This document shows, piece by piece, positions 18,879-22,332 of a stretch of DNA of 59,004 nucleotides. Numbering within the stretch: the stretch's first letter is position 1; every line of letters begins with the position of its first letter. The translations under genes were made by a program, and so were the position numbers. Source of the DNA: Cyanobium sp. CACIAM 14 (GTDB taxonomy: Bacteria > Cyanobacteriota > Cyanobacteriia > PCC-6307 > Cyanobiaceae); the NCBI GenBank assembly GCA_000708525.1, contig JMRP01000014.1, forward strand, positions 1 to 59,004. Direction: 5' to 3'. Under the pieces are notes generated by a model that saw only the letters and a program-made list of their open reading frames with translations, was not told where the DNA came from and made no database searches.

Positions 18879-21071
18879 GTGTTCTGGGTGCCCCGTCTGA
18901 TCCGTCCGCTGCTGGCCTTCCTGCTGGCCTGGCTGCTTCCCCTGATGGGCCTCTCGACGACGACTCTCAGGGCGGCTGAGGTGGCCGCGCCCCCGGCCGC
19001 GAGCCGAGCGACCTACGTGCCTCTGGTGCAGCAGCCCTTCCATTCCCAGCTGCTCGAGCTGCAGCAGCAGTGGACCGATGCTCCCCTCGATCAGGTGGTG
19101 GGGGACAGCCCCCGGGCGACGCTGCTCAATTTCTACGTGGTGATGGCCCAGGTGAGCCGGGACCTCGACCGGATCGAAGCCACGGCCAGCCGCACCCCCG
19201 GGTTGTTCTGGCCGGGGCCGGTCAGGAAGGAGCTTGAGCTGATCAACGGCTATTTCCGGGAAGCGGTGAAGGCCCTGGATGTGCAGGCGATCCCCGAGAG
19301 CATCCGATCCGATTTCGCCGAGGAGTACGCCCTCAAGTTGAAGGTGATTCTTGATTACGTCTTCACCCACAGTCGCAAGCCCTTCGAGATCCCCGATGCG
19401 GCAGGCATGAAGGCGTTGAACGAGAAGCGGGTGACCCCGACCCCAAGCTGGACCCTTCCAGGCACGTCCATCACCCTGAAGGACCAGGTCGCCGGGACGG
19501 GCGGTGACCGCGGCTATCTCTTCTCCGCCGCCACGGTGGCGCAGATCCCTGGTCTCTACAAGGAGATCAAGGATCAGGTACCCCCGCAGGACAGCGCCTC
19601 GTCCTTGCTCACGCCATCGATCTATGACGCCTTCAGCCTCAGGCCGGGCCAGATCCTGCCGCCCAAGTGGTATCTGATGATCCCCGAGGGCTTCCGCCGG
19701 AAGGTGCTCGAGGCCAGTCTCTGGGACCAGACCCTGTTCCAGCTGGTGGTCGGCGTGCTGGCGCTGCTGGCCTATGCCGCCGTGCAGTCCCGGCTGGTGG
19801 TGGCCTTGCTCAGCACCTATCGCCTCGGCGATGGACCCTCCAGGGAGCCGAGCCCGGCCAGGGGCCTCTGGAGAATCGACAATGTCGCCTGGCAGCGGGT
19901 GCTGCTGGCCGGTGCCTCCCTGCCCATGACCCGTCTGCTGGATGTGCTGATCAACCAGTACGTGAACGTCACCGGCACACCATTGCTGGTGCTGACGTTC
20001 CTGTTTTATTCCATCTACTTCATCTCGGCCGGATTGTTCAGCTTCCTGCTGATGGAGGCTCTCGGTCGCAGCCTGACGGAGTGGGTCACAATCCTGCGGG
20101 GTAGACGCAACGAACTCCAGCTGAGCCGCGTCAGCAACCTGGTGATGCCCGTGTGCCGGGTCCTCGGGGCGGTCATCGGCATCTCCCTGATGTACCGGCT
20201 GCTGATCCTGCTGGGCTTGCCGGCGTCCACCGTGCTGGCCTTTTCCGCCGTTCCCGGCCTGGCCATCGGCCTGGGAGCCTCAAAGCTCCTTGGCAATCTG
20301 TTCGCCGGGCTGTCCATTCAGACCGATCGTCCACTGCGGGTAGGTGAATTCTGCCGCATCGGAGACAATCTGGGCTTCGTCACCAAGATTGGACTGCGGT
20401 CCCTGGAGTTGCAGACCCACGAAAGTCGCATCACCATTCCAAATTCGATCGTGGATGAGGAGACGATCGTCAACTACTCGCTGCGGGCCGGTCCATCGAG
20501 GGATGCGTTATGGCACGTCTTCGAACTGCAGCTCCCCCTCTCGGACGACCTCACCCCGGATCAGCTGGATGACCTGCTGCATTACAGCCGATCTTTCCTG
20601 GTGGAGCATCCGGGGTTGTCGAGCGCGCAGGTGTTTCTCGATCAGGCCGGGGACGAGGAAAGCCTGCTGCTTCGCTGCTGCGGGAAGATCCAGGCCCCGA
20701 ACTGGACTGAGTACCTCGGCATCAGGGAATCGGTCCTGCTGCGGTTGCGTCAGCTGATCGATCAGGTGATCCGCTCGCGCATGGTGATCGGCGTCGCTCA
20801 CCACACCAGCCCAGAGCAACTCCAGCGCATCCCCCAGCTGATCGCCGGATTGTTCGAGCTTGAACCGCTGGCGGCGTTCCGCTCCTGCCGGCTGCTGGCC
20901 ATCCGCGACTTCAGTTACGACTTCACCTTCGACTACCGCTCCTCCCAGCCCACCCATGCGGCGTTCAAGGATGAGGTGGCGCGTCTCAACCGGGCGCTGC
21001 TGGCCCTGTTCGCCCGGGAGGGAATCGAGATCCCCTATCCCACCCAGGTGGAGATCCAGAGGGATGGCTGA
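18879..21071 (+). CDS. Large MscS-type mechanosensitive channel
   Basis: This 730-residue protein has a signal/first membrane segment (LLAFLLAWLLPLMGL) and a periplasmic region to about residue 280. Membrane helices follow, including QLVVGVLALLAYAAVQSRLV, LLVLTFLFYSIYFISAGLFS and a pore-type helix with STVLAFSAVPGLAIGLGASK and LLGNLFAGLSIQTDRPLRVG. The beta domain has FCRIGDNLGFVTKIGLRSLE and ESRITIPNSIVDEETIVNYS, a normal MscS arrangement. The long N-terminal region is a feature of large YbdG/MscK-like or cyanobacterial MscS forms. It acts as an osmotic release valve in the plasma membrane. Its 3' end overlaps the next gene by eight bases. Confidence 0.92.
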   Translation: MFWVPRLIRPLLAFLLAWLLPLMGLSTTTLRAAEVAAPPAASRATYVPLVQQPFHSQLLELQQQWTDAPLDQVVGDSPRATLLNFYVVMAQVSRDLDRIEATASRTPGLFWPGPVRKELELINGYFREAVKALDVQAIPESIRSDFAEEYALKLKVILDYVFTHSRKPFEIPDAAGMKALNEKRVTPTPSWTLPGTSITLKDQVAGTGGDRGYLFSAATVAQIPGLYKEIKDQVPPQDSASSLLTPSIYDAFSLRPGQILPPKWYLMIPEGFRRKVLEASLWDQTLFQLVVGVLALLAYAAVQSRLVVALLSTYRLGDGPSREPSPARGLWRIDNVAWQRVLLAGASLPMTRLLDVLINQYVNVTGTPLLVLTFLFYSIYFISAGLFSFLLMEALGRSLTEWVTILRGRRNELQLSRVSNLVMPVCRVLGAVIGISLMYRLLILLGLPASTVLAFSAVPGLAIGLGASKLLGNLFAGLSIQTDRPLRVGEFCRIGDNLGFVTKIGLRSLELQTHESRITIPNSIVDEETIVNYSLRAGPSRDALWHVFELQLPLSDDLTPDQLDDLLHYSRSFLVEHPGLSSAQVFLDQAGDEESLLLRCCGKIQAPNWTEYLGIRESVLLRLRQLIDQVIRSRMVIGVAHHTSPEQLQRIPQLIAGLFELEPLAAFRSCRLLAIRDFSYDFTFDYRSSQPTHAAFKDEVARLNRALLALFAREGIEIPYPTQVEIQRDG

Positions 21072-21648
21072 GCTGTTACTCCAGACCCTGGCAGGCTGCG
21101 GCCTGGCCATCGGTGCCTATCCCCGCTTCGACTACGACGCCCGTGGCGGGGGAGGGGTGGGGTGGCTCGGGAATGGCGTCGGCCGGCTCCCCGGGGAGGC
21201 CGCTGGTGACACGCAGTCCCTGCGTTTCGACCCTGCCGGGCTGACGATCCCGCCGCTCCACTGGCGCACCACCCGTTTTCTGGCTCTGCCGCTGCCACCG
21301 GGACTCCGCATCGGGATCCACCCCGAGCGGCTCGAGGGCTCCATCGATGCCGCCAGCGGGGCCCTGGCCCTGCGCTTCTGCGCCCGCTTCCGCTTCGCCG
21401 TCGGCGGCCTCTACCGGGCTCCCGATCTGATCGTCGACACGACCCTCAGCACCGGCTCCGTCCAGGGGCGCCGCCATGCCGCCAGGGGCCGTCCCCTCGA
21501 TCGCGAGGGCCGGGCGCTGCTGGTGGGGGTGGCCAGCATCGCCCCCAGCGGCGAGCGCTGGCTGGATCGCTTCCTGGGTCTGCCCGACGAGGCCCTGGCG
21601 CTGCTGCACTGCCGCCTCCTGCCGCCGGCGGGTCGGGACTTACCTTGA
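21064..21648 (+). CDS. Conserved hypothetical protein, cyanobacterial type
   Basis: A 194-residue soluble protein starting at an ATG within the last codons of the MscS gene. It contains LAGCGLAIGAYPRFDYDARG, GIHPERLEGSIDAASGALAL, RFCARFRFAVGGLYRAPDLI and RALLVGVASIAPSGERWLDR. The pattern is even and gene-like, but I do not recognise a domain. Translational overlap with the channel gene suggests related expression. Confidence 0.75.
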   Translation: MAELLLQTLAGCGLAIGAYPRFDYDARGGGGVGWLGNGVGRLPGEAAGDTQSLRFDPAGLTIPPLHWRTTRFLALPLPPGLRIGIHPERLEGSIDAASGALALRFCARFRFAVGGLYRAPDLIVDTTLSTGSVQGRRHAARGRPLDREGRALLVGVASIAPSGERWLDRFLGLPDEALALLHCRLLPPAGRDLP

Positions 21649-21672: not shown

Positions 21673-22332
21673 ATGCACCCCCTGCCGCTGCACCTCGGCC
21701 CGGGCAGTGACCTGCGAGCCAGCCTCGAGCAGCTGGCGATCGAGGCTGGCGCGTCCGGCTTCGTGCTGGGTGTGGTGGGCGATCTCTCCCAGGCGGCCTT
21801 CCAGTGCCCCGGCCAGGCCGAGCCCACCCTGCTGCAGGGCCACCTGGAGATCATCACATTGCAGGGCACGCTGGCCCCTCGGGGGGTGCACCTGCACCTG
21901 AGCCTCTCCGACGGTGACTGCCAGGTGTGGGGCGGCCACCTGGAACACGGCAGCCTGGTGCTCCGGGGCGCCGATCTGCTGGTGGGTTTCCTGGCCGGTG
22001 ACGGCGGGCCCGCCACTCCCTCTCCTGCGGAGGCCGGATTCGCCTCCCCCGGGATGACCAGGCCCGCGGGTCCGGCGGTGCCCGCGTCCCCCCGGGTGGA
22101 GATCGCCGTGCTCAGCGGCTGCCCCTATTCGGCCCGGGCCCTCCGCATGCTGCGCACTCTGGGCATTCCCCACGAGGTGCTGCTGGCCGATGGGGACGCC
22201 GAGCGCCAGGCGATCGCCGAGCGCAGCGGCCGCGGCAGCCTGCCCCAGGTGTTCATCGACGGGGAGGCCATCGGCGGCTACGACGCCCTGGCCGACCTGC
22301 ACGGCCGCGGCGCCCTCGACCATCTGCGCTGA
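21673..22332 (+). CDS. Fusion of a PPC/DUF296-like domain and a glutaredoxin
   Basis: The 219-residue protein has two domains joined by a Pro/Ala-rich linker. Residues 1-110 follow the PPC (DUF296) fold: GSDLRASLEQLAIEAGASGF, VLGVVGDLSQAAFQCPGQ, EIITLQGTLAPRGVHLHLSL and DGDCQVWGGHLE. Residues 135-219 are a glutaredoxin: AVLSGCPYSARALRMLRTLG with the CPYS active site, and GRGSLPQVFIDGEAIGGYDA with the cis-Pro loop. In isolation both are common in cyanobacteria; I do not recall them fused. A redox-switched DNA-binding or sensory role is possible but inferred. Confidence 0.85.
   Translation: MHPLPLHLGPGSDLRASLEQLAIEAGASGFVLGVVGDLSQAAFQCPGQAEPTLLQGHLEIITLQGTLAPRGVHLHLSLSDGDCQVWGGHLEHGSLVLRGADLLVGFLAGDGGPATPSPAEAGFASPGMTRPAGPAVPASPRVEIAVLSGCPYSARALRMLRTLGIPHEVLLADGDAERQAIAERSGRGSLPQVFIDGEAIGGYDALADLHGRGALDHLR

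What the first reader, a model, noticed from the sequence alone, without database searches (positions are those of the whole stretch)
21673..22332. PPC (DUF296)-like domain fused to a glutaredoxin
A PPC-like domain joined by a flexible Pro-rich linker to a CPYS glutaredoxin would be a redox-regulated PPC protein. I do not recall a described member. Both active regions look intact.
Basis: inference. Interest (0 to 1): 0.5.

Follow-up and report, generated by a model that had tools for sequence, protein, structure and literature searches.

The report
Widespread PCC–glutaredoxin fusion protein, picocyanobacteria
One gene of this cyanobacterium joins a metal-binding-type PCC domain to a glutaredoxin; the pairing was already listed in print in 2009 and most sampled relatives, Prochlorococcus included, carry it, but what it does is still unknown.

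Summary
ORF 21673–22332 (219 aa) carries a PCC/DUF296 domain (Pfam E 9e-19), a disordered linker and a CPYS glutaredoxin (E 1e-12). It is not a lost stop codon: 115 of 131 genomes of the window's family at least 95% complete have the fusion, named Prochlorococcus records among the carriers; no full-length match is listed for 252 sampled genomes of other families of the class. It is not undescribed: a 2009 paper lists "DUF296-GRX" as a bacteria-specific architecture. Added here: fused PCC domains form one clade. All 58 aligned keep H73/H75/H89 and carry two extra cysteines, C45 and C83, absent from 27 distinct PCC domains not joined to a glutaredoxin (21 aligned, 6 more by eye). A conserved ~190-aa protein without a Pfam family lies beside the gene in 33 of 49 loci, in three arrangements. 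Best model: a metal-binding PCC domain whose family-specific thiols are kept or switched by the tethered glutathione-dependent domain. The chemistry and output are inferred, not shown.

The parts
21673..22332 (+). PCC–glutaredoxin fusion gene, 219 aa
   Evidence: ORF and translation; Pfam; AlphaFold2
21682..21969 (+). PCC (DUF296) domain, residues 4–99
   Evidence: Pfam E 8.8e-19; VIA-align 2p6y Z 19.9, rmsd 1.3 over 109 residues
21805..21807 (+). Cys45 codon (FQCPG), fusion-specific
   Evidence: Cys in 58 of 58 fused, 0 of 21 PCC not joined to Grx; also absent by eye in the 7, one of which (L125) is the same gene as L156 of the 21
21889..21897 (+). His73-Leu-His75, putative metal ligands
   Evidence: both His in 58 of 58 fused and 21 of 21 others
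21919..21921 (+). Cys83 codon (SDGxCQVWGGHLE), fusion-specific
   Evidence: Cys in 58 of 58 fused; Gly in 21 of 21 others
21937..21945 (+). His89-Leu-Glu91; His89 putative metal ligand
   Evidence: His89 in 58 of 58 fused and 21 of 21 others; Glu91 in 39 of 39 of A1, but missing in L168, L169, L170 and L174
21997..22089 (+). disordered, fast-changing linker, residues 109–139
   Evidence: pLDDT under 50 at 112–134; 13% mean pairwise identity
22090..22329 (+). glutaredoxin domain, residues 140–219
   Evidence: Pfam residues 142–200; Foldseek/VIA to E. coli Grx3 and Synechocystis GrxA
22120..22131 (+). CPYS active site, Cys150–Ser153
   Evidence: Cys150 in 39 of 39; fourth motif position Ser in 35, Cys in 4 of 39
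21064..21648 (+). conserved 194-aa neighbour gene without a Pfam family, stop 24 nt before the fusion ATG; predicted beta-barrel
   Evidence: beside the fusion in 33 of 49 loci; window protein has no Pfam match; AlphaFold2 mean pLDDT 91.7
18879..21071 (+). MscS-type channel gene overlapping the neighbour gene; candidate three-gene operon in one clade of relatives
   Evidence: PF00924 E 1.9e-12; homologue upstream in 12 of 48 loci plus the window

Best explanation
It is a two-domain thiol protein. The N-terminal PCC domain, probably trimeric like its solved relatives, keeps the His73/His75/His89 set that looks like a metal site and has gained two invariant cysteines, Cys45 and Cys83. The C-terminal monothiol-type glutaredoxin (Cys150, CPxS), on a flexible tether, uses glutathione to remove or exchange glutathione (or a disulfide) on those cysteines, in the same chain or across the trimer, so that PCC activity follows the cell's thiol state. 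Shown by sequence or model: both domains, the conserved residues, the single clade, the neighbour gene. Inferred: metal binding, trimer, cis-acting redox chemistry. The output (small-molecule reaction, protein scaffold or regulator) is unknown; the neighbouring beta-barrel protein is the best candidate partner.
For: C45 and C83 are in 58 of 58 fused PCC domains and in 0 of 21 aligned cyanobacterial PCC domains not joined to a Grx; the 7 (6 of them new genes) also lack both, by eye. The His triad is shared by both groups (58/58 and 21/21). Fused PCC domains form one clade, 100/100, in a tree whose bootstrap had not fully settled. Grx Cys150, Pro191, Gly201, Gly202, Tyr203 are invariant in 39 of 39, and the resolving position is Ser in 35 of 39, which fits a monothiol (de)glutathionylation role (Grx chemistry recalled). 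The linker is disordered and variable, allowing reach. The nearest precedent, peroxiredoxin–Grx hybrids (1nm3 among hits; L090 and L091 Redoxin + Glutaredoxin), pairs a thiol client with its own Grx. The gene is kept in named Prochlorococcus records and in every sampled 1.6–1.7 Mb genome of the unnamed genus g17.
Against: No coordinates were available, so distances between C45, C83, the His site and C150 were not measured; from strand register C45 and C83 may be far apart. Inter-domain placement is undetermined (pTM 0.53). The Cys and the Grx go with one clade, so their association may be one evolutionary event, not repeated co-evolution. The Grx domain changes faster than PCC (dN/dS roughly 0.1–0.5 against 0.03–0.15), five aligned members lack the helix-2 segment (L068, L072, L073, L078, L178), and Pfam did not call Grx in 1 of 39 members at E<=0.001: the Grx role may be loose in some lineages. 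16 of 131 genomes had no fusion at E<=1e-40 (one of them, G168, is cut by a contig end). The neighbour gene also occurs in 9 of 25 genomes picked for lacking the fusion, G168 included.
Confidence: 0.45

Rival explanations
1. Redox-sensitive DNA-binding regulator: the PCC domain binds DNA (or DNA-bound proteins, as in plant AHL proteins) and the Grx switches it.
For: Proposed for DUF296-GRX by Alves et al. 2009 from a zinc-finger-like motif. Some PCC structures are named 'putative DNA-binding protein'. Glutathionylation of a cyanobacterial nucleoid protein (CyAbrB2 C34) is reported (PMC13421787, passages).
Against: No AT-hook in the 219-aa sequence (by eye). In plants the AT-hook is the part said to bind AT-rich DNA, while PPC is said to give nuclear localisation and protein contacts (PMC4209074, passages). 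The conserved triad is HxH…H in beta-strands of the model, not an evident zinc finger.
Confidence: 0.15
2. Metal-dependent enzyme on a small molecule, perhaps a glutathione adduct: PCC is the catalytic domain and Grx takes or gives the glutathionyl group.
For: His73/75/89 and Glu59 invariant in both groups; AF0104 relative solved as a 'metal-containing protein'. Fold relationship to acetolactate decarboxylase-type enzymes is recalled, from no call.
Against: No substrate or enzyme relative was found. Residues present in 21 of 21 PCC not joined to Grx (R7, S37, R44, T98, T99, E101) are replaced in nearly all fusions, so any shared reaction has probably changed.
Confidence: 0.2
3. Tethered general glutaredoxin: PCC is only a trimerising or targeting module that brings the Grx to clients, for example the neighbouring beta-barrel protein.
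For: PCC trimers (PMC4209074, passages); disordered linker; neighbour gene beside the fusion in three arrangements, with a Cys (C13) in 19 of 20 aligned rows.
Against: PCC is the more constrained half (73% against 57% mean identity, lower dN/dS), and the Grx lacks a helix segment in some members.
Confidence: 0.15
4. Artefact or strain-specific read-through of two genes.
For: None found.
Against: One ORF holds both domains in 48 of the 80 loci kept (two of the 48 cut by contig ends; the other 32 match only from residue 78 onward), and 115 of 131 family genomes have the fusion.
Confidence: 0.01

Closest known systems
DUF296-GRX architecture (Alves et al. 2009, PMC2679010)
   Same: Same domain order, bacterial, CPYC-class Grx.
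   Different: Its main text names neither Synechococcus nor Prochlorococcus and the parts I saw give no residues or neighbours; here the distribution, single clade, extra cysteines and neighbour gene are added. Its supplements were not seen.
Stand-alone PCC/PPC proteins (Pfam PF03479; 2hx0/2nmu, 2p6y, 2dt4, 2h6l)
   Same: Fold and, among the cyanobacterial ones aligned, the HxH…H triad.
   Different: Fused form has C45, P46 and C83 in 58 of 58, and nearly always lacks R7, S37, R44, T98, T99, E101.
Dithiol glutaredoxins (E. coli Grx3, Synechocystis GrxA ssr2061)
   Same: Fold, catalytic Cys, cis-Pro, GGY.
   Different: Ser in place of the second Cys in 35 of 39; the Lys of E. coli Grx3 three residues before the Cys is Leu in 26 and Lys in 1 of 39; below the NCBIfam Grx3 cut-offs.
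Class VI glutaredoxins, said to be restricted to cyanobacteria (Couturier 2009, as cited in PMC3816324)
   Same: Taxonomic restriction to cyanobacteria.
   Different: Whether class VI means PCC-Grx is my recollection only; the defining paper was not held.
Hybrid peroxiredoxin–glutaredoxin (HI0572, 1nm3)
   Same: Thiol client domain with a C-terminal Grx on one chain.
   Different: N-terminal domain is Redoxin, not PCC.

Membership tests
Pfam PF03479 PCC/DUF296 | profile match over the curated cut-off | tested here: met
   68.4 bits against 25; 39 of 39 members of A1 match at E<=0.001
Pfam PF03479 PCC/DUF296 | PCC fold | tested here: met
   2p6y Z 19.9, rmsd 1.3, 109 residues
Pfam PF03479 PCC/DUF296 | trimer and bound metal | not testable with these tools
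   monomer prediction only; His triad conserved
Plant AHL proteins | AT-hook before the PPC domain | tested here: not met
   PCC starts at residue 4 with nothing before it; no RGRP-type core by eye
Glutaredoxin PF00462 | profile match over the curated cut-off, Cys, cis-Pro, GG | tested here: met
   48.4 bits against 22.9; 38 of 39 members match at E<=0.001; residues
Grx3-type equivalogs (TIGR02181, NF007923) | score over the curated cut-off | tested here: not met
   54.5 against 90 and 57.8 against 129 bits
Dithiol glutaredoxin | second active-site cysteine | tested here: not met
   Ser153 here; Ser 35, Cys 4 of 39
DUF296-GRX architecture (Alves 2009) | DUF296 followed by a CPYC-class Grx, bacterial | tested here: met
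   that their CPYC class covers CPxS is my reading
Class VI glutaredoxin | definition in Couturier 2009 | not testable with these tools
   paper not held; only the taxonomic statement seen

The most novel reading that the evidence does not exclude
The fused PCC domain is a new thiol-dependent metalloprotein subfamily: two fusion-specific cysteines and the His site form a redox-gated active or binding site, recycled in cis by the tethered Grx, and working with the uncharacterised beta-barrel neighbour as a module special to picocyanobacteria and kept even in small Prochlorococcus-type genomes.
Probability: 0.22. Interest if true: 0.7.

Novelty: new member of a known kind. Interest (0 to 1): 0.36.

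Why it matters
The gene is kept in 115 of 131 sampled near-complete genomes of the family, whose named relatives include Prochlorococcus and Synechococcus, among the most abundant phototrophs (abundance is general knowledge, from no call). I saw no tested function for a bacterial PCC domain in the papers looked into. A native fusion to a glutaredoxin, plus two cysteines found only in the fused form, turns 'what does PCC do' into a concrete thiol question that can be tested with one purified protein and one knock-out.

Tried and rejected
Lost stop codon or strain artefact: rejected. A PCC–Grx fusion outside the family: none among the matches listed for 252 genomes of other families of the class (the list is cut but sorted by E-value, the best of these 252 is E 1.6e-29, the weakest full-length family match E 4.4e-65; at most 10 first-look candidates per genome were scored). 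The weak rows that span residues 78–206 or 110–216 are a different fusion, Redoxin–Glutaredoxin, in the two checked (L090, L091); L092, L099, L100, L102 look alike by eye only.

Neighbour protein: no Pfam match for the window protein (1 of 20 relatives touches NTF2_SigF at E 0.043), no PDB sequence relative up to E 5, and no Foldseek match at E<=0.001 (best E 0.06). VIA-align gives mixed beta-barrels at Z up to 10.6, which is not enough to name a fold or function. Co-occurrence of neighbour and fusion is loose: 11 of 15 chosen fusion genomes, 9 of 25 chosen for lacking the fusion (one of these, G168, is contig-cut), 0 of 10 outside the family.

Disulfide C45–C83: neither supported nor excluded; no coordinates were at hand. 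Promoter/terminator scan found none. Papers: of those listed by the DUF296/PPC/glutaredoxin searches I looked at passages of seven (PMC2679010, PMC3816324, PMC11887855, PMC10434189, PMC4209074, PMC10295655, PMC13421787; also section 7 of the first); only PMC2679010 showed the architecture. The rest I know from listings only, and most subscription papers are not held. One search found nothing.

Full report
Observation. ORF 21673–22332 on the + strand encodes 219 aa. Pfam finds PCC (PF03479) at residues 4–99, E 8.8e-19, and Glutaredoxin (PF00462) at 142–200, E 1.1e-12, both above cut-off. The AlphaFold2 model from 39 homologues has mean pLDDT 89 with a linker under 50 at 112–134 and pTM 0.53, so the two domains are confident but their mutual placement is not. 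The PCC part superposes on 2p6y (Z 19.9, rmsd 1.3 over 109 residues), 2nmu/2hx0 and the archaeal 2dt4 and 2h6l; the Grx part on Synechocystis GrxA and E. coli Grx3.

Not an artefact. One search kept 80 loci of 155 relatives. In 48 of the 80 (L033–L080) the best match is a single ORF with both domains, two of them (L064, L075) cut by contig ends; the other 32 match from residue 78 onward or later, mostly the Grx alone. Of 131 genomes of the window's family at least 95% complete, own genome included, 115 have the fusion at E<=1e-40. Two of the 115 (G093, G196) show one TAA inside the matched stretch, which I did not examine. Two others (G037, G077) match the profile only over the PCC part, with open frames of 260 and 246 aa: one search shows both parts in G037's frame, and Pfam finds both domains in G077 (L014). 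Of the 16 without, one (G168) has the gene cut by a contig end; seven belong to one genus code, g8. In 25 genomes picked for weak hits, 0 of 25 had a full-length match, G168 included. In a class-wide sample of 290 genomes, 38 of 38 in the family have a full-length match, and none is listed for the 252 in other families (list cut but sorted by E-value; at most 10 candidates scored per genome). Relatives named include Cyanobium, Synechococcus, Prochlorococcus, Vulcanococcus and Aphanothece. Calling the family Cyanobiaceae is recalled; the tool gives a code only, and that genus g17 (1.6–1.7 Mb) is Prochlorococcus is inferred.

What is conserved. In 39 aligned fusions, C45, H73, H75, C83, H89, E91, C150, P151, R155, P191, G201, G202 and Y203 are invariant; the fourth position of the Grx motif is Ser in 35 and Cys in 4. 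Adding 19 more divergent fusions from small genomes (20 regions were fetched; the broken copy L167 was dropped), C45, P46, C83 and the three His remain in 58 of 58, while E91 is missing in L168, L169, L170 and L174. The comparison set is 21 cyanobacterial PCC domains not joined to a Grx (20 fetched plus L001 of the own genome; one, L155, is in a GlmU-like frame and one, L153, in a GNAT frame). They share D13, G36, L38, E59, L63, G65, H73, H75, G88 and H89 with the fusions but have Phe, Leu or Trp at 45, Ala at 46 and Gly at 83; all 21 carry R7, S37, R44, T98, T99 and E101, which are replaced in nearly all fusions (R7 kept in 3, R44 in 1, E101 in 1 of 58). Seven PCC from genomes without the fusion are of the same kind by eye; one of them, L125, is the same gene as L156, so 27 distinct genes were compared. 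A tree of 49 PCC domains puts 28 fused and 21 other domains on opposite sides of one branch, support 100/100; the bootstrap had not fully settled and there are long branches inside the fused clade. So the fused PCC is one remodelled subfamily, and its two cysteines arrived with, or close to, the fusion: probably one event, not many.

Selection. In 15 pairs (8 share the window sequence), dN/dS is below 1 for both domains and lower for PCC (about 0.03–0.15) than for Grx (about 0.1–0.5) by a simple Nei–Gojobori count. Mean pairwise identity is 73% for PCC, 57% for Grx and 13% for the linker. Five aligned members (L068, L072, L073, L078, L178) lack the second helix of the Grx. PCC is therefore the more constrained half.

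Surroundings. The stop of a 194-aa gene (21064–21648) lies 24 nt before the fusion's ATG; that gene overlaps an MscS-type channel gene (18879–21071; PF00924). By profile search the 194-aa protein lies within the held flanks of the fusion in 33 of 49 loci: 13 upstream on the same strand, 10 downstream on the same strand, and 10 on the other strand (8 divergent, with gaps of 137–756 nt; 2, L068 and L078, have a long reverse frame running over the fusion and were scored 'down-' by the script). The loci are related, so these are not 33 independent cases. Keeping two genes adjacent through changed order is the strongest functional hint here. The window protein has no Pfam match, the family no PDB sequence relative, and a confident beta-barrel model without a significant Foldseek match. 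It was not found in 10 genomes outside the family; it is present in 11 of 15 fusion genomes and 9 of 25 picked as fusion-less, so the link is strong in place but loose in occurrence. The channel homologue is upstream in 12 of 48 loci plus the window.

Prior knowledge. Alves et al. 2009 (PMC2679010; passages and section 7 seen) list DUF296-GRX among bacteria-specific architectures with a CPYC-class Grx and suggest DNA binding. PMC3816324 (passages) says class VI glutaredoxins seem restricted to cyanobacteria, citing Couturier 2009; that class VI is this fusion is my recollection, and the paper is not held. PMC4209074 (passages) says the prokaryotic PPC protein stands alone and that strains carry one; this genome has two PCC genes. 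I saw no functional study in the listings or in the seven papers opened.

Mechanism. I favour a thiol client with its own glutaredoxin, as in the peroxiredoxin–Grx hybrids seen among the hits: C45 and/or C83 become glutathionylated or oxidised, C150 removes the modification with glutathione, and the state of the PCC domain, with its His site, follows. The CPxS motif suits glutathione exchange rather than dithiol reduction (established Grx chemistry, recalled). Shown: domains, residues, clade, neighbour. Inferred: metal, trimer, redox coupling, output. Rivals are a DNA-linked regulator, a metal enzyme on a glutathione adduct, and a merely tethered Grx.

Verdict. A real, conserved protein of known architecture and unknown function. 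The fusion itself is not new; the extra cysteine pair and the conserved neighbour are the parts worth a bench test.

Noticed in passing
L155:2-1840 (genome G203): PCC domain at the C-terminus of a frame with nucleotidyl-transferase and hexapeptide-repeat domains (GlmU-like, name recalled): another PCC fusion in a different cyanobacterial family; PCC inside long frames also in G227, G272, G240, G263 and G299 of the same family code (not scanned).
   Followed up: partly
L153:3-914 (genome G062): GNAT acetyltransferase and PCC in one open frame; start codon and true fusion not checked.
   Followed up: partly
window 21064-21648: 194-aa protein with no Pfam match, conserved beside the fusion in three arrangements; predicted beta-barrel.
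   Followed up: yes
L181, reverse strand (own genome C6:86441-86623): A glutaredoxin-family protein whose active-site stretch reads FSADC instead of CPxC/S.
   Followed up: no
L166, L167 (G056), L168-L170: Genus g56 has a strongly diverged form of the fusion; in G056 a second copy is broken while another is intact.
   Followed up: partly
L068, L072, L073, L078, L178: Fusions whose Grx domain lacks the second helix, yet keep C45, C83 and the Grx active-site Cys.
   Followed up: partly
genomes G008, G063, G091, G114, G133, G149, G164: The seven genomes of genus g8 in the sample of at least 95% completeness all lack the fusion and the neighbour gene.
   Followed up: partly
L042: Record titled Bifidobacterium breve MAG carries the fusion (66% identical) and the neighbour gene: likely a mislabelled cyanobacterial contig.
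   Followed up: no
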